A stretch of DNA of 64,000 nucleotides, from assembly GCF_000269805.1 (NCBI RefSeq), contig NZ_JH711481.1:1104569-1168568 (forward strand), read 5' to 3'. Shown piece by piece: positions 7,133-62,842 of this stretch. Position 1 is the first letter of the stretch; each line of letters opens with the position of its first letter. Below the pieces are notes generated by a model. It ran no database searches and was not told the origin of the DNA. It saw only the letters and a program-made list of their open reading frames with translations. Origin of the DNA: Actinomyces massiliensis 4401292 (GTDB lineage: Bacteria; Actinomycetota; Actinomycetes; Actinomycetales; Actinomycetaceae). The translations under genes and the position numbers were made by a program.

Positions 7133-7242
7133 GAGATCGGTCCGGTTCCGCGTCGAGATCGGTCGCAGTCCGCATCGAGATCGGTCCGCTTCCGGCTCGA
7201 GATCGGTCGCAGTCCGCCGCGAGATCGGTCCGAGGCGCGCAC
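7133..7242 (+). repeat. 22-bp repeat array A, 5 units, GAGATCGGTC orientation
   Basis: GAGATCGGTC starts at 7133, 7155, 7177, 7199 and 7221, an exact 22-bp period. The twelve bases between cores are variable but keep a CCG (for example GCAGTCCGCATC). The array fills the gap between the convergent mutT1-like and VOC genes and has no right-hand partner. Confidence 0.95.
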
Positions 7243-7252
7243 CGGGCACTGC

Positions 7253-7645
7253 TCAGGACGGGGCCTGGCCGACTGGGCCCTGGTGGCAGACCGCTTCGAT
7301 GTTGTGCCCGTCGGGGTCCAGGACGAAGGCGCCGTAGTAACCGGGATGGTAGTGAGGGCGTTCACCGGGTGCGCCGTTGTCGGTGCCTCCCGCTGCCAGG
7401 GCGGCCTCATGGAAGGCGTCCACCTGCTCGGTGGAGTCCGCACTCAGGGCGAGGTGGACGGTGGTGGGATTCTGACTTGGGACCAGCCAGAGATCTGGAC
7501 CGGCGCCCTGGGGCTTGGCCACCCCCATGCCGCACACGTCTCCGAACACCATGAGGACGGTATACCCCAGCGGTTCCAGGGCCTGTTCGTAGAAGGCTCG
7601 AGAGGCCGCAGGATCATGGACAGCAAGCGATGCGTGATCAATCAT
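7253..7645 (-). CDS. VOC (glyoxalase/bleomycin-resistance) family protein
   Basis: A single vicinal-oxygen-chelate domain of 130 residues: MIDHASLAVHDPAASRAFYE at the start, VHLALSADSTEQVDAFHEAA in the middle, and FVLDPDGHNIEAVCH at the end, which is the typical C-terminal metal-ligand region. The closest character is a glyoxalase-like or dioxygenase-like protein of unknown substrate. ATG at 7645 fits the family start; an in-frame GTG at 7669 is the alternative. No good Shine-Dalgarno is visible at either. It converges on the mutT1-like gene across array A. Confidence 0.85.
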   Translation of the reverse strand: MIDHASLAVHDPAASRAFYEQALEPLGYTVLMVFGDVCGMGVAKPQGAGPDLWLVPSQNPTTVHLALSADSTEQVDAFHEAALAAGGTDNGAPGERPHYHPGYYGAFVLDPDGHNIEAVCHQGPVGQAPS

Positions 7646-7863
7646 GCTCGGCAATCTAAGGCTTGACACCGTGCGAAGGTCCAGCGCTTCGTGTCGGCTA
7701 CCCGTTAAGCCCCGTTAAGCGTCGTGCCGGGAGTCGGGCGCGGTTGCTGCGGAACAGGACGCAGCGCGCCCCGCTCCGCGCCGGTTGCGCCGACGGCGCC
7801 GACTGCGCTGGCTGGGTCCGGGCTCAGTGATCCATCGGGCTCAGTGATCCATGCGCCGTCGGC

Positions 7864-8952
7864 TCACCAAGACGCGCCCTGCCGCCGGATCTCGAACGGC
7901 GTGCGCAGCGCCGTCACCGGATTCTCCTCGCACAGGCTCTGCGGCAGGACTCCGCGCAGTCCGGTGAGGAAGCCCTCGCCATCGGCGACATCCGCGGGCG
8001 TCGCCCGTTCCACATGAACCCCGGCAGCCTCTATCGCCGTCTCGCGCCTGTACTGCGCCGAAAGCGCGGCGTCGGCGTCCTGCAAGTACTTGATCTCGCC
8101 GTCGATCTCGTAGGCGAGCATCGCCGCCCGCCAGCCGAGATCGGCGTAGAAGACGCCGGCCTCAGTGTGCACGGGCATCTGGGGCTGCGGCGCCGCGATC
8201 CCGTCGATCAGGCACAGTCTGCGCGCCTCGGTCTCCCACACCGATTGGCTCCACGGCGTCGCGGCCATGACGACGGCGCGGGCCCGCCGCACGCCCCGCT
8301 CGTGCGGCCGGGCGTCAAGCCGCTTGAGGAGCGCTCGGCGGAACCGCGCGGCCTCGGCGTCGATTTCGGGGCGATGATCCCAGGGGCGGTCGCCGGCCCC
8401 GGCCGCGATCGCGAACAGCGAGTCGACGACGGCGAGCGCACGGTTGGGCGGCAGGAACCGGGCGCAGTCCTCGGCTGTGCGCTCCAACGAGGTCACGCGC
8501 AGCCCATCGAGCTCGACGATGTCGGAGTCGGCAAGGTCGTAGCGATGCCGGATGAATGGGCGGGCCCCGAGCGCCCGACGGCGGTCGCGCGGCCCGAGCG
8601 CGCGCGAGGCCGGCCGATTGGGCGGACGCCTCCGAGAAGCGCGTCTGAGGCCGGCGGCGTTCCAGCCCACGATGAGGTGAACCGCCGCCGGCTCGTAGAG
8701 CGCGCGCCCACCGTGGAGGAGCGCGGCGGTCTCGAGGGCGACGACGCCGTCGAGCCTTTCAGTGCGGACGACGCGCAGGAGGACTTCGCGGATGGTGCGG
8801 TGGGTGGTGAAGTCGGGTGCGTCGGGGCTGGCCGGTATGTAGGTGCTGCGGCGCACTCGTCGGATCTCGCCGGTGGCCAGGCGGCTCTCGATCTCGCGCG
8901 GATTGCGCTGATCCTGGGGAATTCGCGGGGTGGGACACGTCTTCGGGCTCAT
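7864..8952 (-). CDS. AbiEi/DUF559-like protein (winged helix plus nuclease-fold C-terminus)
   Basis: 362 residues from ATG 8952. The N-terminal part (REIESRLATGEIRRVRRSTY, VVALETAALLHG) resembles the AbiEi antitoxin-type winged helix. The C-terminal part (ETEARRLCLIDGIAAPQPQ, YADLGWRAAMLAYEIDGE, ETAIEAAGVHVERAT) follows the DUF559/endonuclease-like pattern with an acidic E-x-D-G-E motif. Such proteins are abundant in actinobacteria and usually occur alone; no AbiEii-type nucleotidyltransferase toxin is next to it. An upstream ATG at 9048 would add 32 atypical residues. Function is unproven; a type IV antitoxin role cannot be claimed without a partner. Confidence 0.65.
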   Translation of the reverse strand: MSPKTCPTPRIPQDQRNPREIESRLATGEIRRVRRSTYIPASPDAPDFTTHRTIREVLLRVVRTERLDGVVALETAALLHGGRALYEPAAVHLIVGWNAAGLRRASRRRPPNRPASRALGPRDRRRALGARPFIRHRYDLADSDIVELDGLRVTSLERTAEDCARFLPPNRALAVVDSLFAIAAGAGDRPWDHRPEIDAEAARFRRALLKRLDARPHERGVRRARAVVMAATPWSQSVWETEARRLCLIDGIAAPQPQMPVHTEAGVFYADLGWRAAMLAYEIDGEIKYLQDADAALSAQYRRETAIEAAGVHVERATPADVADGEGFLTGLRGVLPQSLCEENPVTALRTPFEIRRQGASW

Positions 8953-9067
8953 GTACCGACAGTGCCCGATGACGCAGCAATTCGCCAGGTGGCGGCAGGC
9001 GCCTGTGGATAACTGCGGTGCCCGGCAGGGCCGCAATCGGTTATCCACAGGTCTGTGCTGCGGGAGG

Positions 9068-9148
9068 TGCCGATCTCGGTGCGGAGTACGACCGATCTCG
9101 GTGCGGAACCGGACCGATCTCGAGCCGGAGAGCGACCGATCTCGGCGA
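9068..9148 (-). repeat. 22-bp repeat array B, 4 units, GACCGATCTC orientation
   Basis: GACCGATCTC occurs at 9090, 9112 and 9134, with a degenerate first copy at 9068. The array lies at the right end of the gap and ends in the CTCGGCG signature that closes the right-hand arrays in this window. It touches the stop codon of the membrane-protein gene. Confidence 0.9.
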
Positions 9149-10072
9149 TCAGCCGGCGATGAAGCTGCCCATGAGGCGCGCGATCGTGTACACCGGTGCG
9201 CCCAGCGCCAGGATCGGCACGATCGCGCTGGCTACCGCGGCGCGCCCGCCCGGCACCCAGCGGTGCGTCCACAGCACTCGGTTGGAGGACGCCATGAGCA
9301 CACCGGCGACGAAGCCGACGATCACGCACGCGGCCGCCGACTGGAGCTCCTGCTGAAGCCCGACATGGCTCGGCCCGAAGAATCCCGCCGCCGCCAGGAT
9401 GCCTCCTGCCACCCCGGCCACGAGCGCGGGAACCGTCAGGGTCAGCGCCTCCAGAACGGTGGCTCGCACCTCGAGCACCGTCAGCAGCGCCCCCGAGAAC
9501 AGCGCCAGCGCGCAGGGGACGATGACCGCCGGATCGGCCAGTCCCGGGGCCAGGGCGCACCAGGCCGCACCCGAGACCGTGATGAGGCCTCCCGCGACTG
9601 TGGCGGACAGATTCTCCACGAGATCCTGACGGCCGTCGTGACGGGCCATCTGGGCGACGAACGCCGCCAGCACGCTGAAGGCCATCACCACGCCCGCGGA
9701 TCCGTAATCTCCGCGCAGGGCGACGACGACGGCCGCGGCCAGACCCGTCAGGGCGACGACGCCGGTGGCGCCCTGGTCGTGCTCGGAGCGGACGAGGGCG
9801 GGCCAGCCCTGCGCAGTCAGCGGCACGAGCAGGCAGATGACGATGAGTCGCACCCACCCCGGCAGCGCCGCGGACACGGCCAGCAGTATGGGCACGATGC
9901 CGGCCATGGCCAGACGCGTCCAGGCCGGATCGACCAGTCCGGGCTCGATCGGATGGTGCCCGCCGCGTCGAGTGCCGTACGCGCCGGGCTCGGCCATCGC
10001 CCCGGAGGACGGCGCGGCGACCGGGGAAATCGGGGAGTCGATGGAGCCCTGGGCGTTCTCCTGGTGGTTCAC
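9149..10072 (-). CDS. Polytopic membrane protein, divergent from glnR
   Basis: About 307 residues with roughly nine hydrophobic segments (for example IVPILLAVSAALPGWVRLIV, VIVGFVAGVLMASSNRVL) and a short polar N-terminus. I do not recognise a family motif. The GTG at 10072 is chosen because it leaves an 84-bp divergent promoter region to glnR; longer upstream starts would overlap glnR. An internal ATG (MAEPGAYGTRRGG) is an alternative. The position next to GlnR suggests, but does not show, a link to its regulon. Confidence 0.6.
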   Translation of the reverse strand: MNHQENAQGSIDSPISPVAAPSSGAMAEPGAYGTRRGGHHPIEPGLVDPAWTRLAMAGIVPILLAVSAALPGWVRLIVICLLVPLTAQGWPALVRSEHDQGATGVVALTGLAAAVVVALRGDYGSAGVVMAFSVLAAFVAQMARHDGRQDLVENLSATVAGGLITVSGAAWCALAPGLADPAVIVPCALALFSGALLTVLEVRATVLEALTLTVPALVAGVAGGILAAAGFFGPSHVGLQQELQSAAACVIVGFVAGVLMASSNRVLWTHRWVPGGRAAVASAIVPILALGAPVYTIARLMGSFIAG

Positions 10073-10156
10073 AGAGGCATCGTCCCACACCTGAAACGGG
10101 CGCATGTGGTTCACTGACACCCGGAACCTCACCGGAGCGCGGAAGGAGTCCGGAGC

Positions 10157-10828
10157 ATGCGCGTCATCATGTTCACCCATGAGGGTGAGGTTGCCAACGT
10201 TCTCCCATCTGCCTGCTTCCTTGATGCCCACGTGGAGTGCCATCCCCCCACGCCCGCCTTCTACAGCGCGATCGATGACGCCGACGTCGTCATGATCGAT
10301 GGCCGCGGGGATCTCATGCGAGCGCGGGCACTGTGCCAGCTGCTGTCCGGTCCGATGGACTGCCCGCCGATCATCCTGGTGATGGAGGAGGGCGGGGCCG
10401 CGGTCGTTCAGCCGGACTGGGGCGCCTCCGACTTCGTCATGGCCGGTGCGACGCCGGCCGAGCTCTCCGCGCGCCTGCGGCTGCTGCGCACTCGGGCGAT
10501 CGCCCCGGAGCCCCTCGGCGATGACCAGATCGAGGTCGGCGACCTGGTCATCGACGCGACCGCCTACACCGCACGCATACGCGGCACGATCATCGACCTG
10601 ACGTACAAGGAGTTCGAGCTGTTGAAGTATCTCGCGCTCAATCAGGGGCGGGTGCTGACTCGCGAGGTGCTTCTGGACGAGGTGTGGGGCGAGGACTACA
10701 TCGGCGGCTCGCGCACGGTCGATGTCCATATCCGCCGCCTGCGCGCCAAGCTCGGCACCGAGCACGACCATTTGATCGGCACGGTCCGCAACGTGGGCTA
10801 CCGTCTCGACGCTCCCGACGAGGAGTAG
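10157..10828 (+). CDS. glnR: GlnR-type orphan response regulator
   Basis: OmpR/PhoB-fold regulator of 223 residues. The receiver is atypical and very close in pattern to streptomycete GlnR: DADVVMIDGRGDLMRARALC (D48), CPPIILVMEEGGAAV, DWGASDFVMAGATPAELSAR. The C-terminal winged helix reads DLTYKEFELLKYLALNQGRV, then SRTVDVHIRRLRAKLG and LIGTVRNVGYR. GlnR is the global nitrogen regulator of actinobacteria and works without a cognate kinase; none is adjacent here. GGAAGGAG precedes ATG 10157. The gene is monocistronic, with a hairpin behind it. Confidence 0.88.
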   Translation: MRVIMFTHEGEVANVLPSACFLDAHVECHPPTPAFYSAIDDADVVMIDGRGDLMRARALCQLLSGPMDCPPIILVMEEGGAAVVQPDWGASDFVMAGATPAELSARLRLLRTRAIAPEPLGDDQIEVGDLVIDATAYTARIRGTIIDLTYKEFELLKYLALNQGRVLTREVLLDEVWGEDYIGGSRTVDVHIRRLRAKLGTEHDHLIGTVRNVGYRLDAPDEE

Positions 10829-10837
10829 GCGCCGGGG

Positions 10838-10867
10838 CGAACGGGGCGGATCCGGAGCGCCCGTTCG
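10838..10867 (+). terminator. Weak hairpin after glnR
   Basis: CGAACGGG (10838-10845) pairs with CCCGTTCG (10860-10867) around a 14-nt loop, starting 9 bp after the glnR stop. There is no T-tract, so it is only a candidate terminator. Confidence 0.4.
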
Positions 10868-11242
10868 GTCGGCGGCTTCCCAGGAGGGACGCCCCGGTGG
10901 ATTGCGCGCTCAGCGGACGGCCGGTAGCCGGGCCGTTCGTGGCTGCGCCGTCGTGGACCGCATGCCCGAGAGCCGCGCAGTCGGGGGCGAGTCGGGGTGA
11001 CGGCGCAGTGACGGCTCGACTGCTCGGCGGTCGCGGGGCCGACTTCCGGCGGACTGCGACGCGCCTGTACTGTGGGGGCGGCGTCGGGCCGTGACGGGCC
11101 CCGGGCTCCACCTCAAGCCGCCGCGAGCGGCATTCGCGCCGACTGGCGCTCTCCGGCCCGACGTCTTTTCTCCTCCCCGCCACCTCCCGCCGGTGCGGGT
11201 CCTTCTACCGTGTGGTCGCTGTCGTGCTGCACTGTGCGGACG

Positions 11243-11308
11243 GACCGATTTCGAGCCGGAAGTGGACCGATCTCGATGCGGAACTCGACCGATCTCGGCG
11301 CGGAGTCG
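11243..11308 (-). repeat. 22-bp repeat array C, 3 units, GACCGATCTC orientation
   Basis: Cores at 11243 (GACCGATTTC), 11265 and 11287. The last unit ends with CTCGGCG and lies only about 20-30 bp upstream of the nitrobindin-like start codon, so promoter or leader sequence overlaps the array. Confidence 0.9.
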
Positions 11309-11326
11309 GCGTTGTACCCTGCGGGC

Positions 11327-13320: not shown

Positions 13321-13472
13321 GCCGCGCCACTGACAGCCACTGCCACTGAGCCGCGCCACTGACCGCCCGCTGATGACCGACTCCCCGGCATCCCCGCTGT
13401 TCTCGAGTTTCTTTTCATGTTCTCCAAGGCCTTCTTCACTGCGGTCCGCTGCACGACCGGTAGGGTGGGCAT

Positions 13473-13850: not shown

Positions 13851-14317
13851 TGCGCGCTGTTCTTCAGCGGGTCAACCGCGCTGCTGTCCATGTGGATGGC
13901 GAGGATGGGCCGGTGACCGTCGGGGAGATCGCCCGTCCCGGGCTGCTTGCGCTCGTGGGCGCCACCCACGACGACGGTCCCGCCCAGGTCGCCACGATCG
14001 CCCGCAAGATCGCCGAGTTGCGCCTGTTCGACGGCCCCGGCGATGACGGCGGCGCCCCCGGCCGCGAGGTCTCGGTGAGCGATCTCGGGGCGCCGGTGCT
14101 CGTCGTCTCCCAGTTCACGCTCTACGCCGACGTGCGCAAGGGGCGCCGGCCGTCCTGGAACGCCGCCGCGCCGGGCCCCGTGGCCGAACCGCTGGTCGAT
14201 GCCGTCGTCGAGGCGCTGCGCGGTCGCGGCCTGGAGGTGGCCACCGGGAGCTTCGGAGCCCATATGAGGATCTCCATGGAGGCCGACGGTCCGGTGACGA
14301 TTGTGGTGGAGGCGTGA
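13850..14317 (+). CDS. dtd: D-aminoacyl-tRNA deacylase
   Basis: 155 residues, the normal length of the family. It recycles D-aminoacyl-tRNA. Conserved motifs are [17 protein letters not shown] in the middle and the C-terminal GPVTIVVEA, which includes the Gly-cisPro motif. ATG 13850 overlaps the DUF2516 stop by one base. The last 12 codons and stop are the first copy of an 83-bp tandem repeat that continues downstream. Confidence 0.95.
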
Positions 14318-14540
14318 GGCGTGGGGTGTGTCAGCGGTGAGGAGGCCGACGGTCGGGTGCTGAGGCCGACGGTCCGGTGACGATTGTGGTGGAGGCGTGA
14401 GGCGTGGGGTGTGTCAGCGGTGAGGAGGCCGACGGTCGGGTGCTGAGGCCGACGGTCCGGTGACGATTGTGGTGGAGGCGTGAGGCGTGGGGTGTGTCAG
14501 CGGTGAGGAGGCCGACGGTTGGGTGCTGAGGCCGACGGTC
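14281..14540 (+). repeat. 83-bp tandem repeat copied from the dtd 3' end
   Basis: GGCCGACGGTCCGGTGACGA recurs at 14281, 14364 and 14447, with a partial fourth copy at 14530: an 83-bp period, about 3.1 nearly identical copies. Each unit contains the last codons of dtd, its stop and about 45 bp of downstream sequence. The near-identity suggests recent slippage or unequal crossing-over. The period is not a multiple of three, and the copies lie outside the reading frame. Confidence 0.95.
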
Positions 14541-14545
14541 GCTAC

Positions 14546-14620: not shown

Positions 14621-14658
14621 TTGAGGAAGACGCGTTGACCTCGATAACCACATAGCGC

Positions 14659-19224: not shown

Positions 19225-19890
19225 GAGATCGGTCGCTCTCCGCGTCGAGATCGGTCCGGTTCCGGCTCGAGATCGGTCGTACTCCGCGCCGAGATCGGTC
19301 CGCTTCCGTGTTGAGGTTGTGGTGTGTCAGGGCATCTGGGACGGGTGTGTGTTTGGGGTGTGGTGGTGTCCGGTGGGGTGGTTTTCGGGGTTGGGGGTCG
19401 TGTGAAGTGGGTTGGATGGCCGTGGGGTGGCTCTGCCGGTGTCCTCGTGGCACCCGTGTGCAACACCGAAAACAACCGACGCCCATGGGGTGGTTTTCGG
19501 GGTTGGGGGTCGTGTGAAGTGGGTTGGATGGCCGTGGGGTGGCTCTGCCGGTGTCCTCGTGGCACCCGTGTGCAACACCGAAAACAACCGACGTCCACCA
19601 GGTATCACCCACCACGCCCCGCACTGAGATCGGTCCGGCTCGGCCCGGCCAACCCGACGTCGAGGCGCGCACGACGAGCTCGAGAGCGAAAGCTGCATGC
19701 CACGCACCTCAGAACCATCAACACACAGCAGACCCGCGGAACCTGACCGATCTCGATGCGGAGATCGACCGATCTCGGTGCGGGTTGCGACCGATCTCGA
19801 TGCGGGTTGCGACCGATCTCGATGCGGAGATCGACCGATCTCGGCACGGGTTACGACCGATCTCGAGCCGGAGTGCGACCGATCTCGGCG
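19225..19890. mobile_element. Composite repeat module 1 (inverted 22-bp arrays around a core)
   Basis: Left array D (cores at 19225, 19247, 19269, 19291; GAGATCGGTC), a T/G-rich core starting GTTGAGGTTGTGGTGTGTCAG, one more GAGATCGGTC at 19627, a conserved segment around GACGAGCTCGAGAGCGAAAG, then right array E in the opposite orientation. Same layout as modules at 23.8, 50.9 and 57.8 kb, but without the hairpin element the others carry. No coding frame in the core is conserved between copies. It fills most of the 19150-20012 gap. Confidence 0.75.
19374..19597 (+). repeat. 112-bp tandem duplication inside module 1
   Basis: GTTTTCGGGGTTGGGGGTCG occurs at 19381 and again at 19493, and the following bases match to about 19597, giving two almost identical 112-bp copies. 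Only this module has the duplication. Confidence 0.95.
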
Positions 19891-23732: not shown

Positions 23733-24100
23733 CCAGTGGCCAGGCCGTTGCAGCGTCCTGGTCCTGACGGGCCTTGACGGGCCTTGACGGGACTTGATGG
23801 TCCTGACGGCCCTGACGTCGAGATCGGTCGTACTCCGCCTCGAGATCGGTCCACTTCCGCGTCGAGATCGGTCGAAGCCCGCATCGAGATCGGTTCGGGG
23901 CGGGGCGCGCCTCTTTCTTCTCGGGTTCTCGGAACTTCTCGATTTCGAGGTATCTCGGCTTGCGCGGTCCGCAGATCTGAATGTTGACGTGCCCGAGCGA
24001 CCATCCGTCGGGGTGCATGGGCGGCTTTGAAGGTGCCCGTTTCGATGGGACTGCAGGAGGCCGGCAGCTTCAGGCGCTGAACGGACAATACTGACAATGT

Positions 24101-24309
24101 TGCACATTCGTCCGCGATCTGTGCCGATAGAAACCTTGGAATCACGCGAAAAGAGATTCTGGTGAGTGCGGTTGTCCTTACTCCCATGTGTACAGACCCC
24201 CTCAGTGCACATGGGAATGTGATGACTGGTATTGACGCGTCTTGAGAATCCCTGGAATCTAAGCGAAAAACGGCTGTCGCTTTTTGAGGGGATCTTCCTC
24301 CCGTGTGCA
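24101..24309 (+). ncRNA. Conserved structured element, copy in module 4
   Basis: Starts TGCACATTCG. GGAATC follows in the middle, and the hairpin CCCATGTG / CACATGGG (24183-24216) comes 82 bases after the start, exactly as in the copies at 51.2 and 58.2 kb. The loop contains the shared AGACCCCCT. A terminal CCCGTGTGCA lies at 24300. Between them AAGCGA (24261) pairs with TCGCTT (24277), followed by TTTTG, resembling an intrinsic terminator on the plus strand. Transcription is inferred. Confidence 0.5.
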
Positions 24310-24571
24310 GCCCCGTCTGAGCCGTCTGAGTCGGTCGACCGATCCGAAGGGTGAACGAGATGCGCTCCTCACGTTGACGGCGGCTGGCCGTAAGAACGGT
24401 TCTCTCTGACTCTCGTGTTCTCGTCTTCGGATTCCTGTCCTCGGAAAGATCGGGACGAGGGCGGAACGCACTGTCGATGTGTGGTGGTGCTGGGCGCCTT
24501 TCGTGCTCTCAGACCTTGAGGCGGCACTTCGAGTCGCCTTCTCTGAGCGTCCTGAACTCGGTGTGGAGTGC

Positions 24572-24747
24572 GACCGATTTCGATGCGGAACTCGACCGAT
24601 CTCGACGCGGAAGTGGACCGATCTCGCGGCGGAGTGCGACCGATCTCGAGCCGGAAGTGGACCGATCTCGCGGCGGAGTGCGACCGATTTCGACGCGGAA
24701 CTCGACCGATCTCGAGCCGGAAGTGGACCGATCTCGGCGGGGAGGCT
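24572..24747 (-). repeat. 22-bp repeat array G, 8 units, GACCGATCTC orientation
   Basis: Cores at 24572, 24594, 24616, 24638, 24660, 24682, 24704 and 24726. Two of the cores are GACCGATTTC, and the array closes with CTCGGCG. It is the right arm of module 4, about 210 bp upstream of clpC. Confidence 0.95.
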
Positions 24748-40015: not shown

Positions 40016-40055
40016 GAGGCCCGGGCGGGTGCTGTTGAAGCTCCGCCCGGGCCTC
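40016..40055 (+). terminator. Hairpin after ppdK
   Basis: GAGGCCCGGGCGG (40016-40028) pairs perfectly with CCGCCCGGGCCTC (40043-40055), loop 14 nt, 69 bp after the ppdK stop. No T-tract. Confidence 0.6.
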
Positions 40056-40063: not shown

Positions 40064-40232
40064 GAGATCGGTCTGAGGAACCGATCTCGGTGCGGAACTG
40101 GACCGATCTCGGCACGGAGTACGACCGATCTCGCGGCGGAAACGGACCGATCTCGAGCCGGAACTGGACCGATCTCGAGGCGGAAGCGGACCGATCTCGG
40201 CGCGGAGTGCGACCGATCTCGGCGAGAAGGGG
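40064..40232. repeat. 22-bp repeat array H, 1 inverted + 7 units
   Basis: One GAGATCGGTC (40064) is followed after CTGAGGA-type spacing by ACCGATCTCG, then cores at 40101, 40123, 40145, 40167, 40189 and 40211. The first two units face each other and form a hairpin with an 11-bp stem. The array ends CTCGGCG, just upstream of the moxR ribosome site. It looks like a composite module whose core has been lost. Confidence 0.95.
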
Positions 40233-46830: not shown

Positions 46831-46910
46831 GAGATCGGTCGTACTCCGCGTCGAGATCGGTCCGGTTCCGCCTCGAGATCGGTCCGATTCCGTACCGATA
46901 TCGGCGACAA
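46831..46910 (+). repeat. 22-bp repeat array I, 3-4 units, GAGATCGGTC orientation
   Basis: Cores at 46831, 46853 and 46875 and a degenerate one near 46897 (ACCGATATCGGC). Left-end type only; no inverted partner before the MprF-like gene. Confidence 0.9.
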
Positions 46911-50937: not shown

Positions 50938-51717
50938 GAGATCGGTCGAGTTCCGCGTCGAGATCGGTCGTACTCCGCGTCGAGATCGGTCCGGTTCCGG
51001 CTTGAGATCGGTCCGGTTCCGGCTCGAGATCGGTTCGGTTTTGTGTTGGGGTTGTGGTGTGTGAGGGCATCTGGGGCGGGTGCGTGTGTGGGGTGTGGTG
51101 GTTTCCGGTGGTGTGGTTTTTGGGGTTGGGGGTCTTGTGAGGTGGGTTGGATGGCCGTGGGGTGGCTCTGCCGGTGTCCTCGTGGCTTCCGTGTGCCGGA
51201 TGGTGGGTGTTGCACACTCGTGTGCATTCGGCGTTGGTGGGAGCAGCGGAATCGTGCGGAACAGCAAAGTCAGTAGCGGGCGCGGTCCTGTTCCCATGTG
51301 CGTAGACCCCCTAGGTGCACATGGGAGCAAGACCGCCGCGCGCGATGATCGCTGGAAAATTCCGTCATTCCAACAAGAACCAGCCTCGCCCTACAGAGGC
51401 CCCAGCCTCCCATGTGCAACATCGAAGACGACCGACGCCCGCCAGGTACACCCGCCACGTCCCGCATTGAGATCGGTCCGGTTCCGGTTCGAGATCGGTC
51501 CGGCTCAGCCTGGCCGGCCCGACGTCGAGGCACGCACGACGAGCTCGAGGGCGAAAGCCGCATGCCGCACCTCGGAACCATCAACACACAGCAGACCTGC
51601 GGAACCGGACCGATCTCGGCACGGGTTACGACCGATCTCGAGCCGGAATGCGACCGATCTCGAGGCGGAAGTGGACCGATCTCGGCACGGGTTACGACCG
51701 ATCTCGGCAAAAATGAG
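50938..51717. mobile_element. Composite repeat module 2 (inverted 22-bp arrays around a core)
   Basis: Left array J (cores at 50938, 50960, 50982, 51004, 51026), T/G-rich block starting TTGTGTTGGGGTTGTGGTG, the RNA-like element, two further GAGATCGGTC units (51469, 51491), the GACGAGCTCGAGGGCGAAAG segment, then right array K in opposite orientation (51608, 51630, 51652, 51674, 51696). It fills the whole gap between the convergent esterase and hydrolase genes. No gene recognised inside. Confidence 0.78.
51211..51418 (+). ncRNA. Conserved structured element, copy in module 2
   Basis: Begins with TGCACACTCGTGTGCA, itself a hairpin, then GGAATCGTGCGGAACAGCA, then the CCCATGTGC / GCACATGGG hairpin 82 bases from the start with AGACCCCCT in the loop. 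Further on GCCTC pairs with GAGGC; in module 3 the same stem is GCCCC with GGGGC, a compensatory change. It ends at CCCATGTGCA (51409). No open frame is preserved between copies. Strand of transcription unknown. Confidence 0.55.
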
Positions 51718-54054: not shown

Positions 54055-54223
54055 GAGATCGGTCCGAAGAACCGATCTCGAGCCGGAAGTGGACCGATCT
54101 CGAGCCGGAAGTGGACCGATCTCGAGACGGAGTGGGACCGATCTGGGTGCGGAGATGGACCGATCTCGAGCCGGAAGCGGACCGATCTCGAGCCGGAGTT
54201 CGACCGATCTCGGCGCGGGTGGG
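54055..54223. repeat. 22-bp repeat array L, 1 inverted + 7 units
   Basis: GAGATCGGTC at 54055 faces ACCGATCTCG about 15 bp further on, forming a hairpin like array H, then cores at 54092, 54114, 54136 (GACCGATCTG), 54158, 54180 and 54202, closing CTCGGCG. It lies between metX and metY. Confidence 0.95.
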
Positions 54224-55933: not shown

Positions 55934-57709
55934 GTGAGCCTGACCCATCGCACGCGGCGACCGCGCGGTGCCGTGCGCCTCACTGGGCTGACCGGTGAGC
56001 GCTTCGGTACTGCTCTGGCCGCCCTCACTCTCACTGTGGCGCTCATGCCGTCGGTGAGCCCCACTGCCCTTGCCGACGAAGTGACGAAGCAGGATGTTGA
56101 CCAGTCCAAGACGGCTGAGGGCGGCGCATCCACGTCGATCGCCGACCTCGAAGCCCAGCTCAGCCAGCTCAATGTCGATCTCGACTCGGCGCGGCTGACC
56201 GCCCAGACGGCCACGGAGGACTACCTCGTGGCGGTCAACGACCTCGAGACCGCCACTTCGGACGCCGAGACCGCTCAGCAGACCGCCGTCGACGCGGCCG
56301 CGGACGTCAGTGCGGCGCGGGTGGAGCTGGGCGCCGTCGTCTCCCAGACCTATGAGGAGGGCAACACCGGCCCGCTCGACGCTCTGGCCCCGTTCCTGAC
56401 GACTCAGTCGATGGGGGACATCTCCGATGTCAGCGTCACCCTGGAGAGCATCGGGGCCAGCGCCGATTCCCGGGTGCAGAAGGTCGAGGCCTGTCAGGCG
56501 GCCGCGGATACCGCGCAGACGCTGGCCGATCAGAAGGTCACCGACAAGCAGACTGCGGCCACCGAGGCGGAGAACGCCAAGAACACCGCCACCACTGCGG
56601 TGACGACGGCGGAGACGGCCGTCACGGAGACCGAGACCAAGCGGTCCGGCCTCATCACGAAGCTGGCCGTGCAGCGCAACACGACCTATGAGCTCGAGGT
56701 CAAGTACCAGGACAAGGTCGAGACCGAGCGCAAGGCCCGTGAGGAGTCGGCCGCCAGGGAGGCCGTAGGGGTTCCCGCTTCGTCCTCGGCTCCTAAGGAC
56801 CCCGGGGAGGCCGTGCCGACGGCATCGGCCTCGCCGACCGCTGAGACCGAGCCGACGTCCGGGGCGACGCCGACTGGTGCGCCGAGCGCTGAGCCGACTG
56901 CAGAGCCATCTGCGCAGCCGACCCAGGTCCCTGAGCCCACGCGGAGCGCCGAGCCCACTGCCGACCCCACGCGGAGCGCCGGGCCGACCAATGACCCCAC
57001 TCCCGCCCCCACTCCGACTGCGGAGCCGACTTCCGAGCCCACACGGACTGCTGGGCCGACGGCCGGGCCGACGCCATCCGCCAAGCCGAGTGCTGAGCCG
57101 ACCCCGGAGCCCACGCGGAACGCCGAGCCGACGGCCGGGCCGACGCCATCCGCCAAGCCGAGTGCTGAGCCGACCCCGGAGCCCACGCCGAGCGCTGAGC
57201 CGACTGCCGAGCCGACTCAGGCCCCGGAGCCCGAGCAGACTCCCGAGGCGCCGGCCGCCGAACCCGAGCCGGACGCCGAGGAGCCCGCGCCGGAGCCCGA
57301 GGAGGATGCTGAGGAGCCGGCCCCGGAGCCCGAGCACGTCTACGGTGCGGGTGCCGACACCGCGATCGCCGCGGCCCAGGAGTACCTCGGTGTGCCTTAC
57401 GTGTGGGCCGGTGAATCATTCGACGGCGTCGACTGCTCCGGTCTGACGATGCTCGCCTACCAGTCCGCAGGGGTGGACCTCACGCACTCCTCGCGTGTGC
57501 AGTACGGAGAGGGCGAGCAGGTCGATCTGGCTGATGCGCAGCCCGGCGACCTCGTCTTCTGGTCCTCCGACGGCAGCCAGGAGGGCATCTACCACGTCGC
57601 CATCTACCTGGGCGACGATCAGATGATCGAGGCTCCGACCTTCGGCATTCCCGTTCGTATCACCGAGATGCGCTACGCCGACATCATGCCTTACGCCGTG
57701 CGCCCCTGA
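55934..57709 (+). CDS. Secreted NlpC/P60 (C40) peptidoglycan endopeptidase
   Basis: 591 residues. A basic N-terminus and hydrophobic stretch (ALAALTLTVALMPSVSPTAL) give a signal peptide. Residues about 60-280 form a RipA-like coiled coil. Then comes a Pro/Thr/Ala/Glu region of about 180 residues containing a 72-bp (24-residue) repeat at about 57061-57204, and finally the catalytic domain with C501 (GVDCSGLTMLAYQSAG) and H554 (GIYHVAIYLG). It would cleave peptide stems of the wall. GTG 55934 has GGAGA 6 bp upstream. The P/T-rich region is likely a wall-spanning spacer. Confidence 0.93.
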   Translation: MSLTHRTRRPRGAVRLTGLTGERFGTALAALTLTVALMPSVSPTALADEVTKQDVDQSKTAEGGASTSIADLEAQLSQLNVDLDSARLTAQTATEDYLVAVNDLETATSDAETAQQTAVDAAADVSAARVELGAVVSQTYEEGNTGPLDALAPFLTTQSMGDISDVSVTLESIGASADSRVQKVEACQAAADTAQTLADQKVTDKQTAATEAENAKNTATTAVTTAETAVTETETKRSGLITKLAVQRNTTYELEVKYQDKVETERKAREESAAREAVGVPASSSAPKDPGEAVPTASASPTAETEPTSGATPTGAPSAEPTAEPSAQPTQVPEPTRSAEPTADPTRSAGPTNDPTPAPTPTAEPTSEPTRTAGPTAGPTPSAKPSAEPTPEPTRNAEPTAGPTPSAKPSAEPTPEPTPSAEPTAEPTQAPEPEQTPEAPAAEPEPDAEEPAPEPEEDAEEPAPEPEHVYGAGADTAIAAAQEYLGVPYVWAGESFDGVDCSGLTMLAYQSAGVDLTHSSRVQYGEGEQVDLADAQPGDLVFWSSDGSQEGIYHVAIYLGDDQMIEAPTFGIPVRITEMRYADIMPYAVRP

Positions 57710-57757
57710 CGGGCTGCGGACTCGCGCCCCGGCAGCGCCGGCTGTGAAGCACCGACG

Positions 57758-57793
57758 CGTCGCCCCCTGCCTCTCTTGAGGCAGGGGGCGACG
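57758..57793. terminator. Terminator hairpin after the NlpC/P60 gene
   Basis: CGTCGCCCCCTGCCTC (57758-57773) pairs perfectly with GAGGCAGGGGGCGACG (57778-57793), loop TCTT. It starts 48 bp after the stop codon. Confidence 0.85.
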
Positions 57794-57846
57794 TCGTCTC
57801 GGCGGGGTCCGCCGGGGCTAGTCAGGCCTGCGAGCCGAACTCCGCC

Positions 57847-58723
57847 GAGATCGGTTCGGTTCCGCGTCGAGATCGGTTGCTCTCCGGCTCGAGATCGGTC
57901 GTAACCCGTGCCGAGATCGGTCCGCTTCCGGTTCGAGATCGGTTGCTCTCCGGCTCGAGATCGGTCGTAACCCGTGCCGAGATCGGTCCGCTTCCGGTTC
58001 GAGATCGGTCGCTCTCCGCGTCGAGATCGGTCCGGTTTTGTGTTGGGGTTGTGGTGTGTCAGGGCGCCTGGGACGGGGTGCGTGTGTGGGGTGTGGTGGT
58101 TTTCGGGGTTGGGAGTCGTGTGGGCTGGACGGCCGGGGGGGCTCTGCCGGCGTCCTCGTGACCCTCGTGGACAGGGGGTGGCGGGTGTGTTGCACACTCG
58201 CGTGCATCCGGCGTCGGTGGGAACCACGGAATCATGCGGAACAGCACTATCAGTAGTGGTCGCGGTCCTGTTCCCATGTGCGTAGACCCCCCTGACCGCA
58301 CATGGGAGCCCGACCGCCACACACAGTTATCACCGGAAGATCCCGTCATTCCAACAAAAAACAGCCCCCGCCCTACAGGGGCCCCAGCCTCCCATGTGCA
58401 ACATCGAAGACAACCAACACCCGCCAGGTATCACCCGCCACGCCCCGCACCGAGATCGGTCCGCTTCCGGTTCGAGATCGGTCCGGCTCAGCCTGACCAA
58501 ACCGACGTCGAGGCGCGCACGACGAGCTCGAGAGCGAAAGCCACATGCCGCACCTCGGAACCATCGGAGAGCAGCAGACCCGTGGAAACTCGACCGATCT
58601 CGAGCCGGAGTGCGACCGATCTCGGTGCGGAGATGGACCGATCTCGCGGCGGAGATGGACCGATCTCGAGCCGGAGTACGACCGATCTCGATGCGGAAGC
58701 GGACCGATCTCGGCGAAGGGGTG
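57847..58723. mobile_element. Composite repeat module 3 (inverted 22-bp arrays around a core)
   Basis: Left array M has nine units (57847 to 58023) with an internal exact 66-bp (three-unit) duplication, 57869-57934 and 57935-58000. Then come the T/G-rich block, the RNA-like element, two GAGATCGGTC units (58452, 58474), the GACGAGCTCGAGAGCGAAAG segment, and right array N in opposite orientation (58592, 58614, 58636, 58658, 58680, 58702). It occupies most of the 1.07-kb gap between convergent genes; no protein gene recognised. Confidence 0.8.
58191..58400 (+). ncRNA. Conserved structured element, copy in module 3
   Basis: Begins TGCACACTCGCGTGCA, continues GGAATCATGCGGAACAGCA, and carries the CCCATGTGC / GCACATGGG hairpin at the same 82-base distance, with AGACCCCCC in the loop. 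The later stem GCCCC/GGGGC replaces GCCTC/GAGGC of module 2. Ends CCCATGTGCA (58391). Strand of transcription unknown. Confidence 0.55.
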
Positions 58724-58776
58724 CGCGGGCGCGGTCAGGGCCGGCCAGGGTCAGGGCCGGCCAGGGGCGGGCGCGG

Positions 58777-59286
58777 TCAGTGGCTCTCGGGGCTCTCGCG
58801 GGCGATCCGCTCGGCCTCGCGCTCGTAGGAGCGCCGAATCTCCTCCTCGGCCTCCTCGCGGCCGACCCAGTGAGCGCCCTCCACGCTCTTCCCGGGCTCG
58901 AGGTCCTTGTAGACCTCGAAGAAGTGCTGAATCTCCAAGCGGTGGAACTCGGAGACGTCCTCGATGTCGGTGCGCCAGGAGGCGCGCTGATCCGCGGACG
59001 GGACGCACAGGACCTTGTCGTCGCCGCCCTTCTCGTCGCGCATGCGGAACATGCCCAGGGCGCGACAGCGGATGAGGCAGCCGGGGAACGTGGGCTCCTC
59101 CAGCAGCACCAGCGCATCGAGCGGATCCCCGTCCTCGCCGAGCGTGCCGTCGATGAAGCCATAGTCATCCGGGTATCGCGTCGAGGTGAACAGCATGCGG
59201 TCCAGCATGATGCGGCCCGTGGCGTGATCCACCTCGTACTTGTTGCGGTTGCCCTTGGGGATCTCGATCGTGACGTCGAACTCCAC
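58777..59286 (-). CDS. ppa: Inorganic pyrophosphatase (family I)
   Basis: 169 residues, soluble Mg-dependent enzyme. Conserved [20 protein letters not shown], the metal site [18 protein letters not shown] and the loop [14 protein letters not shown] are present. It pulls pyrophosphate-releasing reactions forward. It is divergent from dacB (160 bp apart), a gene order seen in many actinobacteria. Right array N ends about 55 bp beyond its stop. Confidence 0.96.
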
Positions 59287-59448
59287 GGGTCTCTCCTTAC
59301 AGTAGTATCGGCTTCAGCCGTCCCAGTGGCACTAGTGTGGCCTACGACGGCGCTCCTGCGGGACATCCTACGGCCCGGTTCCCCGCGGCGGGGTCCCGGT
59401 CGCATCCGTGGGGCCGTCCGACCTGTGGGCCAACCCATTGGAGGAGAT

Positions 59449-60846
59449 GTGCGCAAGGCTCAGATCGCGGCGCTCACTGTCGCCACGCTCGCCGTCGCGA
59501 GTGCCTACTACGGGCTCGCCGACTCCCTCGACCTCGTTCCGGGGCCGCTGAGCGCGGCCTCCAGCTCCTATCGTCCGCAGCCCTACCCCACGCCGTCGCC
59601 GCCGGCGGAGGAGTCGGGGACGCCGTCGGGGCTCGATGCCGATGCGCCGGCCCCCACGGCCGCGGCGCTGAACTCCATGGCCTCCACGCTGGCCTCGGAT
59701 CCCATGGTCGGCAAGGGCACGACCGCCACCACCGTGATCGACGTCGCCACCGGCGAGACCCTGCTCGACGTCAACGGGGGGAGCGCGCTCACGCCGGCAT
59801 CGTCCAACAAGGTCCTCACCGCCTGGGCGGCGCTGTCGGCGCTCGGCCCCGATCACACGCTGACGACCAAGGCGGTCGTGTCGGGAGGAACCGTCACACT
59901 GGTCGGCGGCGGGGATGTGCTGCTGGCGGCCGACGCCGGAGATCCGAGCGCCACCGTGGGGCACGCGGGCCTGGGCGACCTCGCCCGCAGCACCGCCGAG
60001 GCCCTGAAGGACAAGGGCGTCACCAGCGTCAGCGTCGCCCTGGACGACACCCTGTTCACCGGCCCCAGCTGGAACAGCAGTTGGGAGGACGGCAATCAGG
60101 CCTGGGTCGCCCCGATCCAGCCGATCATGCTCGACGTCACCGCCCACTCCCACAGCGGCGCCTATCCGAGCGACCCCGCGATGGAGGCCGCGAAGGCCTT
60201 CTCCGACCAGCTCACGGCCGCGGGCGTCGCGGTGACGGGCGACGTCACACGGGGCGCCGCCTCCTCGGACGCCTCCGAGCTCGCCTCCGTCGAGTCCGCG
60301 CCCCTGGCCGATGTCCTATCCGTATCCCTGAAGACCTCCGACAACACCATGACCGAGGTCGAGGGGCGCCTGGTCGCCATCGACGCGCACCGGGAGGCCA
60401 CCTTCGAGGGGGCCACCGGGGCCGTGCTCGCCCAGCTGGGGACCGACGGTTTCGACACCACCGGCGTCACCATGCTCGACTGCTCGGGATTGGCGCTGGG
60501 GGACAAGGTCTCCAGCCGGCTCCTGGCGCAGATCATCGCCCGATCCGCGGGCGCCGACGGCGGCACCGTCGGGCGGACGCTGCTCACCGACCTGCCCGTG
60601 GGGGCGCTGGACGGCACGCTGGGGGATCGGTTCGAGGGAGTCGGGGGCGCGGGGACCGTGCGCGCCAAGACCGGGTCCCTGGGCACCACCGCATCCTTGA
60701 CGGGGACGGTCGTGACCAAGGATGGGCGGCAGCTGGCCTTCGCGGTGATCGTCGACGACTTCGAGGACGGTGGTCTGACCTCGGCGCGCACGGCGATCGA
60801 CAACGACTTCGTGATTCCACTGGCCGACTGCGGCTGCAGCGGCTGA
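59449..60846 (+). CDS. dacB: D-alanyl-D-alanine carboxypeptidase/endopeptidase (PBP4, S13)
   Basis: 465 residues. The N-terminal hydrophobic stretch IAALTVATLAVASAYYGLAD acts as signal or anchor. Active-site motifs are S118-S-N-K121 (TPASSNKVLTAWAAL), S297-D-N299 (LKTSDNTMTEVEGR) and K407-T-G409 (RAKTGSLGTTASLTG). It trims peptidoglycan stems. GTG 59449 with GGAGGAG is chosen; the much longer frame beginning at 58234 runs through repeat module 3 and ppa and is not real. Confidence 0.93.
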   Translation: MRKAQIAALTVATLAVASAYYGLADSLDLVPGPLSAASSSYRPQPYPTPSPPAEESGTPSGLDADAPAPTAAALNSMASTLASDPMVGKGTTATTVIDVATGETLLDVNGGSALTPASSNKVLTAWAALSALGPDHTLTTKAVVSGGTVTLVGGGDVLLAADAGDPSATVGHAGLGDLARSTAEALKDKGVTSVSVALDDTLFTGPSWNSSWEDGNQAWVAPIQPIMLDVTAHSHSGAYPSDPAMEAAKAFSDQLTAAGVAVTGDVTRGAASSDASELASVESAPLADVLSVSLKTSDNTMTEVEGRLVAIDAHREATFEGATGAVLAQLGTDGFDTTGVTMLDCSGLALGDKVSSRLLAQIIARSAGADGGTVGRTLLTDLPVGALDGTLGDRFEGVGGAGTVRAKTGSLGTTASLTGTVVTKDGRQLAFAVIVDDFEDGGLTSARTAIDNDFVIPLADCGCSG

Positions 60847-60946
60847 GGCGGCCGAGCCGAGACAGTCGAGCTGAGACAGCAGAAACAGCCGACATAGCCG
60901 AGGCGGCCGAGATGGTTACAGGATGATCAGCGGGGACAATAGGCGG

Positions 60947-62089
60947 GTGAGCCCGAGTACCGCTTCCGCGCCGACCGCCGCCGACCTCGTCGACTGGGAC
61001 GCCGCCGTGCGCCTGGCGCGCCTCGCCGTTCCCGCGGGTCCGCGTGTGCCCACGGCAACCCGCCGCGCGACCGTCGCCCTGCTGCACCGCAGCATCGTCG
61101 GCGCTACGCCCTGGGCCGGCCGTATCACCGGTCTGCCCGATGCCGCCCGGCACGCGGCCGCGACGGCCGAGGTCCTGGTGGTGGACCGCACGGGCCTCAT
61201 GACCGCCTCAGCGGCCTGGCTGCGCGGGCTCATGAGGAATATGGGGGATAGGGGTATCGCCGCTCCCGACGTCGGTCGCGGCACGCGTGCACTCGCCACC
61301 GCCCACGTCGGCGCCGTCCTGGGATACATGTCCACCCGGCTCCTCGGCCAGGTCCTGCCCCCGCTCGGAGCCTCCGCCGGCACCCGACCCGGCGCCCGGC
61401 TGCTCCTGGTGGCGCCCAACGTTCTGGCGATCCGGCAGCGGCTCGACCTCGATGTCCTCGACCTGCCCGCCTGGATCACGCTCCACGAGGCCACGCATCT
61501 GATCCAGCTGAGCGCCGCGCCGTGGCTGGCCGAGCACCTTGTCGCTCAACTGGGCGCGGTCGTGCGCGGACTCGTTGACGCGAGCCGGCGCACGGCTTCC
61601 GGCAGGGCGGAGCGGTGCGCCCGACTCGCCCGGGCCGCCGCACGTGCGCGGAGCGCGGATGGGCGCCCGTCCGAACCGGCCGCCCTCCTGCTCGGCGGTC
61701 TCCTCGAACCGTCCGAGCGGGCCGCGCTGGCGCGCGTCGTCGCGCTCCTGACGCTGCTGGAGGGGCATGCGGAAGCGGTCCTCGACGCCGTCGATCCCAG
61801 CCGTATGCCCTCGGTCCACCGGTTGCGCGCCGTGCTGGCCCGCACGCGCCGCGATGCCGGTGATGCCGGCGGCGTCGGGCCCGGGTCGGGCTCGGGGTCG
61901 CTGCTGCACCATATGATCGGCATGGAAGCCAAGGAGGCCCAGTACGCCGACGGCGCGGCCTTCGTGCGCGCGGTCGTGGCGCGGGTGGGCCATGCGGGAC
62001 TCAATGCGGTGTGGGCCGCGCCGGATCATCTGCCCCGGCCGGGTGAGCTCGCCCGGCCCGATCAGTGGATCGAGCGCCTCGGACTGTGA
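60947..62089 (+). CDS. Zinc-dependent metalloprotease-like protein (DUF2342 family)
   Basis: 380 residues. The zinc motif is H180-E-A-T-H184 (WITLHEATHLIQLSAAPWLA), with the segment EGHAEAVLDAVDP downstream as the likely third ligand region. This actinobacterial family is sometimes labelled as coenzyme-F420-associated; its substrate is unknown. ATG 60923 would add eight residues. It follows dacB as in many actinobacteria, but the gene expected next, tilS, is not there. Confidence 0.85.
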   Translation: MSPSTASAPTAADLVDWDAAVRLARLAVPAGPRVPTATRRATVALLHRSIVGATPWAGRITGLPDAARHAAATAEVLVVDRTGLMTASAAWLRGLMRNMGDRGIAAPDVGRGTRALATAHVGAVLGYMSTRLLGQVLPPLGASAGTRPGARLLLVAPNVLAIRQRLDLDVLDLPAWITLHEATHLIQLSAAPWLAEHLVAQLGAVVRGLVDASRRTASGRAERCARLARAAARARSADGRPSEPAALLLGGLLEPSERAALARVVALLTLLEGHAEAVLDAVDPSRMPSVHRLRAVLARTRRDAGDAGGVGPGSGSGSLLHHMIGMEAKEAQYADGAAFVRAVVARVGHAGLNAVWAAPDHLPRPGELARPDQWIERLGL

Positions 62090-62191
62090 TCTGACCGTGA
62101 AGGGCGAGGGCGGTCGCGTTATGGCAGGCTTGGCGGTGCCGGCAACCGCTTAGCACCGCTTACGACCGCTTACGCACATTGAGGAGCGCAC

Positions 62192-62746
62192 ATGGACGCC
62201 GCGGACATGGGACCCGACCTCGCGCAGGTCCTCATCACCGAGGAGCAGATCGCTCAACGCCTTGATGAGATGGCCGCCCGGATCGATGCCGACTACGAGG
62301 GGCGGGACCTGCTGCTGGTCGGCGTGCTCAAGGGAGCGGTCTACGTCATGGCCGATCTCTCACGGCGTCTGCACCGCAGTGCGCCCATGGACTGGATGGC
62401 CGTGTCCTCCTACGGGTCTGGAACCAAGTCCAGTGGCGTGGTGCGCATCCTGAAGGATCTCGACACCGACCTGACCGGTCGTCATGTCCTCATTGTGGAG
62501 GACATTATCGACTCCGGACTGACGCTGTCGTGGCTGGTGGGCAATCTGTCGAGCCGAGGGGCCGCCAGTGTTGAGATCGCGGCGCTCCTGCGCAAACCGG
62601 AAGCGGCCAAGGTGGAGGTGGACGTCAAGTACGTCGGCTTCGACATCCCCACCGAATTCGTTGTGGGCTACGGGCTGGATTATGCCGAGGAGTACCGGAA
62701 CCTCTCCTTCATCGGAACGCTGCGCCCCGAGGTGTACGGGGGCTGA
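62192..62746 (+). CDS. hpt: Hypoxanthine phosphoribosyltransferase
   Basis: 184 residues. PRPP-binding loop VLIVEDIIDSGLTL, N-terminal VGVLKGAVYVMADLSRRL, and the C-terminal FVVGYGLDYAEEYRNLSFIG. It salvages hypoxanthine and guanine. ATTGAGGAG lies 5 bp upstream of ATG 62192. Upstream the word CCGCTTA occurs three times (62149-62176). The usual tilS in front and ftsH behind are absent here. Confidence 0.96.
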   Translation: MDAADMGPDLAQVLITEEQIAQRLDEMAARIDADYEGRDLLLVGVLKGAVYVMADLSRRLHRSAPMDWMAVSSYGSGTKSSGVVRILKDLDTDLTGRHVLIVEDIIDSGLTLSWLVGNLSSRGAASVEIAALLRKPEAAKVEVDVKYVGFDIPTEFVVGYGLDYAEEYRNLSFIGTLRPEVYGG

Positions 62747-62776
62747 GCCCGCCGAGTCGGTCGAGGCCCTTGCGTC

Positions 62777-62842
62777 GAGATCGGTCCGCTTCCGCGTCGA
62801 GATCGGTCGTACTCCGCACCGAGATCGGTCCGGGGGGGGGCG
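62777..62842 (+). repeat. 22-bp repeat array O, 3 units, GAGATCGGTC orientation
   Basis: Cores at 62777, 62799 and 62821; the last runs into a G9-10 homopolymer. Left-end type only, 30 bp after the hpt stop. Confidence 0.9.

What the first reader, a model, noticed from the sequence alone, without database searches (positions are those of the whole stretch)
7133..62842. A dispersed family of 22-bp tandem arrays in at least 15 intergenic tracts
The unit is GAGATCGGTC followed by NNNNYCCGNNNC with an exact 22-bp period. Arrays lie at 7133, 9068, 11243, 19225, 19745, 23820, 24572, 40064, 46831, 50938, 51608, 54055, 57847, 58592 and 62777, with extra pairs at 51469 and 58452; I count close to 90 units. 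They avoid genes almost entirely. The core is constant while the 12-nt remainder varies within a limited vocabulary, so this is neither CRISPR nor simple slippage. I know of no named repeat that matches.
Basis: seen in the sequence. Interest (0 to 1): 0.9.

Follow-up and report, generated by a model that had tools for sequence, protein, structure and literature searches.

The report
Inverted 22-bp repeat arrays in Actinomyces
Some Actinomyces bacteria have a couple of hundred short, exactly spaced 22-letter repeat arrays between their genes, often set as mirror-image pairs, which look like scattered mobile or protein-binding elements unlike the known repeats they were tested against.

Summary
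In detail: 87 units in 20 runs, all 17 listed places real; the 10-mer occurs 75 times against 0.64 expected. The genome is an Actinomyces. (1) Polarity: all 32 opposite-facing neighbours found are tail-to-tail, from palindromes with a 4-nt loop to arms 0.8 kb apart. (2) Multi-copy carriers were seen only in Actinomyces, with cores and linkers differing between lineages. (3) Pairs enclose other DNA; five of five spacers compared are the 3' end of one regulator gene. (4) An unrelated 19-bp family has the same layout. Fixed and free positions alternate within the unit, spacing never drifts and six single arms show no excess RNA structure, which fits phased DNA-protein sites. Y1/RAYT transposases are absent from 49 of 49 genomes searched; Mu/Tn7-type is in one non-carrier only. 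Best reading: non-autonomous dispersed elements whose inverted ends are binding-site arrays for an unidentified protein. Mobility is inferred: no target duplication and no partner enzyme were found.

The parts
7133..7230 (+). lone arm, 5 cores, 22-bp period, 47 bp after the stop of the predicted + gene 6066-7085
9068..9143 (-). lone arm, 4 cores (innermost decayed), 5 bp beyond the stop of the predicted - gene 9149-10771
11243..11296 (-). lone arm, 3 cores (one GAAATCGGTC); overlaps the predicted start of a + gene by 21 bp
19225..19300 (+). left arm, 4 cores, of a composite element
19313..19732 (.). enclosed DNA, 420 bp, sharing pieces with the ~540-bp core family; holds a 112-bp direct duplication (19374-19597), a lone + core (19626-19635) and a regulator-gene 3' fragment (about 19648-19732)
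19745..19886 (-). right arm, 7 cores
23820..23895 (+). left arm, 4 cores (last GAGATCGGTT)
23908..24559 (.). enclosed DNA, 652 bp, with only 36-37 bp local matches elsewhere in the 464 kb searched
24572..24735 (-). right arm, 8 cores
40016..40055 (+). GC-rich terminator-like hairpin between the upstream gene and the palindrome; a similar hairpin stands at the same place in A. israelii
   Evidence: read by eye
40064..40220 (.). palindrome: one + core, short loop, 7 cores on - (innermost GAGATCGGTT); a 2+2 palindrome stands in the orthologous A. israelii gap; RNA fold z -2.1
46831..46884 (+). lone arm, 3 cores
50938..51035 (+). left arm, 5 cores (last GAGATCGGTT)
51048..51595 (.). enclosed DNA of the ~540-bp family, with a + pair at 51469-51500 and a regulator-gene 3' fragment at about 51513-51595; the same gap in A. 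gerencseriae holds only a compact palindrome
51608..51705 (-). right arm, 5 cores
54055..54211 (.). palindrome: one + core, short loop, 7 cores on - (two decayed); RNA fold z -3.6
57759..57792 (+). GC-rich terminator-like hairpin between gene 55934-57709 and the array; also present in A. israelii, whose gap has no array
   Evidence: read by eye
57847..58032 (+). left arm, 9 cores (three GAGATCGGTT), with a 66-bp higher-order period
58045..58579 (.). enclosed DNA, type copy of the ~540-bp family, with a + pair at 58452-58483 and a regulator-gene 3' fragment at about 58496-58579
58592..58711 (-). right arm, 6 cores
62777..62830 (+). lone arm, 3 cores

Best explanation
A family of non-autonomous dispersed elements, seen in multiple copies only in Actinomyces. 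The simplest form is a palindrome: core-linker-core, 4-nt loop, core'-linker'-core' (68 bp). Arms lengthen and shorten by whole 22-bp units, and other DNA can lie between the two arms. Each 22-bp unit is most likely a site, two helical turns long, for a lineage-specific DNA-binding protein, most simply the enzyme that copies or homogenises the elements. Shown: position-specific conservation, tail-to-tail polarity, lineage differences in core and linker, unit turnover at the same site, enclosed gene fragments. Inferred: binding, the protein, and active mobility.
For: Spacing is 22 (296) or 44 (26), nothing else below 60. In 168 units lying between two exact cores, whose own letters were not used to find them, core positions are 89-100% conserved, CCG 96-99% and the last C 99%, while positions 11-14 and 19-21 have a top letter of 28-64% (same picture in 391 units). 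Six single arms from the window fold no better than shuffles (z -1.2 to +1.5), three perfect palindromes reach z -12.6 to -15.1, two window palindromes -2.1 and -3.6. Opposite-facing neighbours within 3 kb and with no predicted gene between: 32 tail-to-tail, 0 head-to-head. Lineages differ: GAGATCGGTC with YCCG linkers (G000, and the contigs named A. israelii and A. gerencseriae), GAGACCGGTC (G033, G036, G004), GAGTTCGGT (G005), mostly GAGGTCGGTC (G030). Units change in place between G036 and G033: two against three; [++][--] against [+++]. Seven of 15 array gaps of G000 also bear arrays in A. israelii against 3 of 44 array-free gaps, p=0.0015. G036/G033 orthologous arrays are more conserved than flanks, 302/315 against 1388/1582. 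Five of the nine 83-85-bp spacers were compared and all five match codons about 306-337 of the 338-codon gene C1:119997-121013.
Against: No protein was identified. No target-site duplication was seen (by eye). No gene between sampled tail-to-tail arrays looked like a transposase by eye, without a family search. In G036/G033 the core is not significantly more conserved than the linker (200/206 against 102/109, p=0.15), so homogenisation or constraint of whole units explains at least part. Most arms in the window are not complementary in their linkers. Cores do not track clades strictly: G014, G063 and G066 mix GAGATCGGTC and GAGGTCGGTC, and the first is also the core of the distant G000 group. 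In A. gerencseriae all three comparable array gaps were scored empty, though one holds a compact palindrome. Presence/absence cannot be oriented as gain or loss.
Confidence: 0.55

Rival explanations
1. Bidirectional transcription terminators or 3'-UTR RNA elements: the inverted arrays form long hairpins between genes, with a C-rich leader acting like a rut region.
For: Arrays favour convergent gaps (28 of 85) over tandem (45 of 238) and divergent (10 of 98). The outer flank is C-rich (46% C, 27% G in 42 stop-to-array stretches against 34/35% after 261 stops without arrays). Perfect palindromes are very stable.
Against: The C-rich flank also occurs where an array faces a gene's 5' end (42% C, 25% G, 38 cases). 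Lone arms in tandem gaps are not sense-biased (19 against 13, p=0.38), and the six single arms folded have no excess structure. At three gaps read by eye a separate GC-rich terminator-like hairpin stands beside the array, with a counterpart in A. israelii (W57759-57792, W40016-40055, the C1:152981 gap).
Confidence: 0.15
2. Chromosome-organising or insulating binding sites (gyrase- or IHF-like, nucleoid protein), kept by selection where they stand rather than spread as selfish elements.
For: Same-site retention across species, exact phasing, position-specific conservation.
Against: Not detected in most of the genus, including relatives close to carriers (G029, G015, G022; patterns with other cores would be missed). 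Presence/absence is common: 8 of 15 gaps scored empty in A. israelii, of which at least three hold decayed arrays (C1:86688, C1:152981, W23732). Density uneven, 1 to 17 arrays per 50 kb.
Confidence: 0.2
3. Neutral satellite-like repeats spread only by recombination and gene conversion, without a dedicated binder.
For: 44-bp higher-order similarity (units i and i+2 share the first four linker letters in 23.5% of 170 against 8.7% expected), unit gain and loss in place, core not significantly above linker in one species pair.
Against: Conserved positions alternate with free ones inside the same unit; inverted polarity; no length drift.
Confidence: 0.1

Closest known systems
REP / REPIN / BIME (passages of PMC3116915 and PMC3733652)
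   Same: High-copy, intergenic, inverted doublets forming hairpins; lone copies; family differences between lineages.
   Different: No stem-loop in the unit; exact 22-bp direct arrays inside each arm; no Y1 transposase in 49 of 49 Actinomyces genomes.
MITEs (features recalled)
   Same: Short, non-coding, dispersed, inverted ends, some with enclosed DNA.
   Different: Ends are phased arrays of variable length; no target duplication or parent transposase found.
Tn7 / Mu transposon ends (22-bp TnsB / MuA sites, recalled)
   Same: Several 22-bp protein sites per end, inverted between the two ends.
   Different: Mu-transpos_C (PF09299) is in 1 of 49 genomes, G010, which has neither repeat family.
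Plasmid iterons (about 17-22 bp direct repeats, recalled)
   Same: Two-turn exact phasing, conserved core with variable remainder.
   Different: Chromosomal, dispersed at an estimated 220 places, inverted pairs; one composite element searched had no plasmid match.
DNA uptake sequences and their dialects (passages of PMC3630211)
   Same: Short cores with lineage dialects; inverted pairs between genes.
   Different: Here 408 of 418 exact cores sit in 22-bp arrays; the paper's passage says intragenic DUS are common.

Membership tests
REP/REPIN | each unit is itself a short stem-loop | tested here: not met
   six single arms of the window, z -1.2 to +1.5
REP/REPIN | RAYT (Y1, PF01797) transposase in the genome | tested here: not met
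   0 of 49 genomes; the control search rings in 5 of 14. CGTC-type REPs are reported to lack a dedicated transposase
REP/REPIN (CGTC type) | CGTC tag beside an 8-9 bp stem | tested here: not met
   CGYC precedes the first core in 75 of 122 arrays, CGTC in 20, but single arms show no stem; definition from passages of PMC3733652
MITE | inverted terminal repeats, dispersed copies | tested here: met
   32 tail-to-tail pairs; 9 of 20 G036 loci with perfect palindromes
MITE | target-site duplication | tested here: inconclusive
   flanks of 20 G036 loci and nine cross-species gaps read by eye (a tenth gave no sequence); none visible, flanks diverged
MITE | ends shared with an autonomous transposon | tested here: inconclusive
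   none seen by eye among sampled array pairs; about a quarter of the genome was read
Tn7/Mu-type ends | TnsB/MuA-type transposase (PF09299) | tested here: not met
   1 of 49 genomes, not a carrier; none of the 14 control genomes rings for this family
CRISPR | repeats of about 23-50 bp with unique longer spacers (recalled) | tested here: not met
   10-bp core, 12-nt linkers of a shared vocabulary
DNA uptake sequence | copies scattered singly, also in genes | tested here: not met
   408 of 418 exact cores in arrays; 408 of 11,308 array bases in predicted genes
Rfam family | match at gathering score | tested here: not met
   0 in the window; over 57500-59000 the one match up to E=1 is a sub-threshold Pxr hit at 57706-57799, outside the arrays
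ISfinder/Dfam entry | sequence match | not testable with these tools
   libraries not on hand

The most novel reading that the evidence does not exclude
A new class of bacterial mobile element, 'array-ended' elements: a protein recognises exactly two-turn-phased sites and moves whatever lies between two inverted arrays, from a 4-nt loop to about 1 kb including captured gene ends. The class exists in at least two unrelated sequence families (22 bp and 19 bp) in one genus, and its cores and linkers differ between lineages as if following a changing protein.
Probability: 0.28. Interest if true: 0.82.

Novelty: new variant of a known kind. Interest (0 to 1): 0.6.

Why it matters
If the arrays are the ends of mobile elements, a common genus of human oral bacteria carries a transposition or homogenisation system that does not use the Y1 enzyme of REP elements or the Mu/Tn7-type enzymes. 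Exact phasing plus lineage-specific cores gives a ready assay: a protein that binds the core of one lineage should bind another's less well. The repeats may also complicate assembly of these genomes and could serve as species or strain markers.

Tried and rejected
CRISPR, simple slippage, uptake sequences, REP/RAYT and Tn7/Mu ends were tested and set aside (membership tests). No transposase was recognised by eye inside array pairs. An IS1634-like transposase in pieces (C1:127649-129196; name recalled, no family search) sits within an array, but flanked by a 173-bp direct repeat, so I read it as a passenger. The RNA unit-hairpin idea was dropped. Strand bias of lone arms: none. The viral collection (exact two-unit pattern) and the plasmid collection (one composite element, window 57840-58720) gave no match.

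Papers: none of the listed results of my searches is about such a repeat in Actinomyces (10 listed of 119,541; 2 of 2; 12 of 19; 10 of 10). One search found the 10-mer's letters in PMC9001825, whose listing is about single-strand annealing; I did not open it. Passages only were seen of PMC3733652, PMC4666352, PMC2266710, PMC3630211 and PMC3116915.

Mended on re-check: 'each clade has its own core' was too strong, and core conservation was partly built into the way units were found, so repeats it without that bias.

Full report
CHECK. GAGATCGGTC occurs 75 times in the window; 100 dinucleotide shuffles average 0.64. The two-unit pattern occurs 430 times in the genome, 207 forward and 223 reverse, 0 in the reversed control. 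I sampled 864 kb (C1:1-800000 plus the window); the 235 exact pairs there extrapolate the genome to about 220 arrays and 940 units.

ANATOMY. The unit is GAGATCGGTC-SNNN-YCCG-NNNC. Because runs were found by their cores, I also read 168 units lying between two exact cores: core letters are 89-100% conserved, CCG 96-99%, the last C 99%, while the top letter at positions 11-14 and 19-21 reaches only 28-64%. The 391 internal units give the same picture. The first core is preceded by CGYC in 75 of 122 arrays. By eye the array ends on a core, so the form is core-(12-nt linker-core)n. Distances between exact cores are 22 (296) or 44 (26), nothing else below 60. Units two apart resemble each other more than neighbours do. 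On average a C-rich flank of some 25-40 nt precedes the array, whether it faces a gene's 3' or 5' end.

POLARITY. Of opposite-facing neighbouring runs within 3 kb and with no predicted gene between, 32 are tail-to-tail and 0 head-to-head. One search, on the smaller 464-kb sample, had 24 tail-to-tail and also 8 same-facing neighbours. Spacings run from six overlapping or near-overlapping palindromes, through nine pairs with a spacer of 83-85 bp, to 822 bp. C1:439778-439846 is a perfect palindrome; the stretch folds at -75 kcal/mol, z -15. Some pairs enclose a diverged ~540-bp family. Five of the nine 83-85-bp spacers were compared with predicted proteins, and all five match the last ~30 codons of one gene, C1:119997-121013, which itself lies beside an array. 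I call it LacI-type from recall of the family's sequence; no family search was made. So some packages carried a piece of a host gene.

CONTEXT. Gaps of at least 80 bp with an array: convergent 28 of 85, tandem 45 of 238, divergent 10 of 98; convergent against divergent p=0.0002. Lone arms in tandem gaps point sense 19 and antisense 13 times, no bias. Gene calls are from my own codon-usage caller.

RELATIVES. Matching contig lengths show that G060 and G028 hold these records (inference). In 49 genus genomes a looser pattern matches 16, eight of them with 19 or more matches and four with one. On a single-gene ClpC tree the high-count carriers fall in three places: A (G000, G028, G060), B (G005, G030 and others with few copies), C (G033, G036, G004); G059 has four matches elsewhere. 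A uses GAGATCGGTC with YCCG linkers, C uses GAGACCGGTC. B is mixed: GAGTTCGGT in G005, mostly GAGGTCGGTC in G030, GAGATCGGTC and GAGGTCGGTC in G014, G063 and G066, mostly with linkers of the type NNNNTWACC. So the dialect is by lineage, not strictly by clade. In an even sample of 396 genomes of the order, 3 of 389 outside the genus have one or two matches, and 0 of 28 other-genus members of the family have any.

EVOLUTION IN PLACE. G036 and G033 are mostly 90-94% alike over the loci compared. At one site [++][--] faces [+++]; at another a compact palindrome faces arms with about 1 kb between them; at a third two units face three; at a fourth (L188) G033 has no array. Six of the seven G036 loci with a counterpart in the G033 sample have arrays in both. 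Over seven alignments cores agree in 200/206, linkers in 102/109, flanks in 1388/1582 positions, gaps set aside; the inverted arm of L176 aligns poorly and is included. Between G000 and A. israelii 7 of 15 array gaps are shared against 3 of 44 array-free ones. At least three of the eight gaps scored empty hold decayed arrays by eye (C1:86688, C1:152981, W23732); the 44 array-free gaps were not read that way, so I leave the test as it was. In A. gerencseriae three of three comparable array gaps were scored empty; one (W50927) holds a compact palindrome.

FUNCTION. Fixed and free positions within one unit, exact two-turn phasing and no excess RNA structure in six single arms point to a DNA-binding protein. 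Inverted polarity, palindromic simplest forms, nine perfect palindromes among 20 G036 loci and enclosed gene pieces point to dispersal as inverted-ended units. Y1 and Mu/Tn7-type enzymes do not co-occur. Which protein does it is unknown, and mobility is not shown.

SECOND FAMILY. In lineage B a 19-bp family, core GTTGGACC/GGTCCAAC, has the same layout around a 21-nt palindromic centre, with 185 exact pairs in G030, 123 in G014 and 54 in G005; 10 of 49 genomes match, G000 with one. At one locus compared between G014 and G066 the arms differ in unit number. Two unrelated sequences with one architecture argue for a shared mechanism.

NOVELTY. Passages of PMC3733652, PMC3116915, PMC3630211, PMC2266710 and PMC4666352 were read; none of those passages describes such arrays. 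The listed results of searches show no account in Actinomyces. Most subscription papers are not held.

Noticed in passing
G030, G014, G005, G066, G063, G012; L123:5407-5563, L115:17212-17380: An unrelated 19-bp-period family (core GTTGGACC/GGTCCAAC) with the same inverted-array layout around a 21-nt palindromic centre; in several listed G014 loci one arm uses linker GGGGCGTGGGC and the other SGGGGAACAGS.
   Followed up: partly
G000 C1:127300-129520 (L015:7300-9520): An IS1634-like transposase, in pieces, inserted in an array and flanked by a 173-bp direct repeat (99.4% identical). A passage of PMC2266710 reports long variable target duplications of 8-514 bp for IS1634 and IS1549.
   Followed up: partly
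L122:694-822 (G015), L123:19127-19221 (G030): Further short-period intergenic arrays: 20 bp in G015 and 23 bp (TCGGTACGTAAGATCTACCGACC, 4.1 copies) in G030.
   Followed up: no
L118 and other G005 stretches: In G005 most arrays share an outer flank and an inner sequence with an inverted repeat AAGTGTCCAGATTCGGCACGAAC, MITE-like.
   Followed up: partly
G000 C1:154095-154418 (L016:14095-14418): A small gene that looks by eye like the nucleoid protein Lsr2 lies between a + array (153014) and a - array (154536); no family search was made.
   Followed up: no
window 14279-14540: 3.2 near-identical 83-bp tandem copies (99%) running over the end of a predicted gene.
   Followed up: no
window 19374-19597: A 99% identical 112-bp direct duplication inside the enclosed DNA of one element.
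   Followed up: no
window 57706-57799: Sub-threshold Rfam Pxr hit (30 bits, gathering 80) over the GC hairpin after gene 55934-57709; probably chance.
   Followed up: no
G030, many loci: A dispersed repeat of about 450 bp matching about L115:16563-17012.
   Followed up: no
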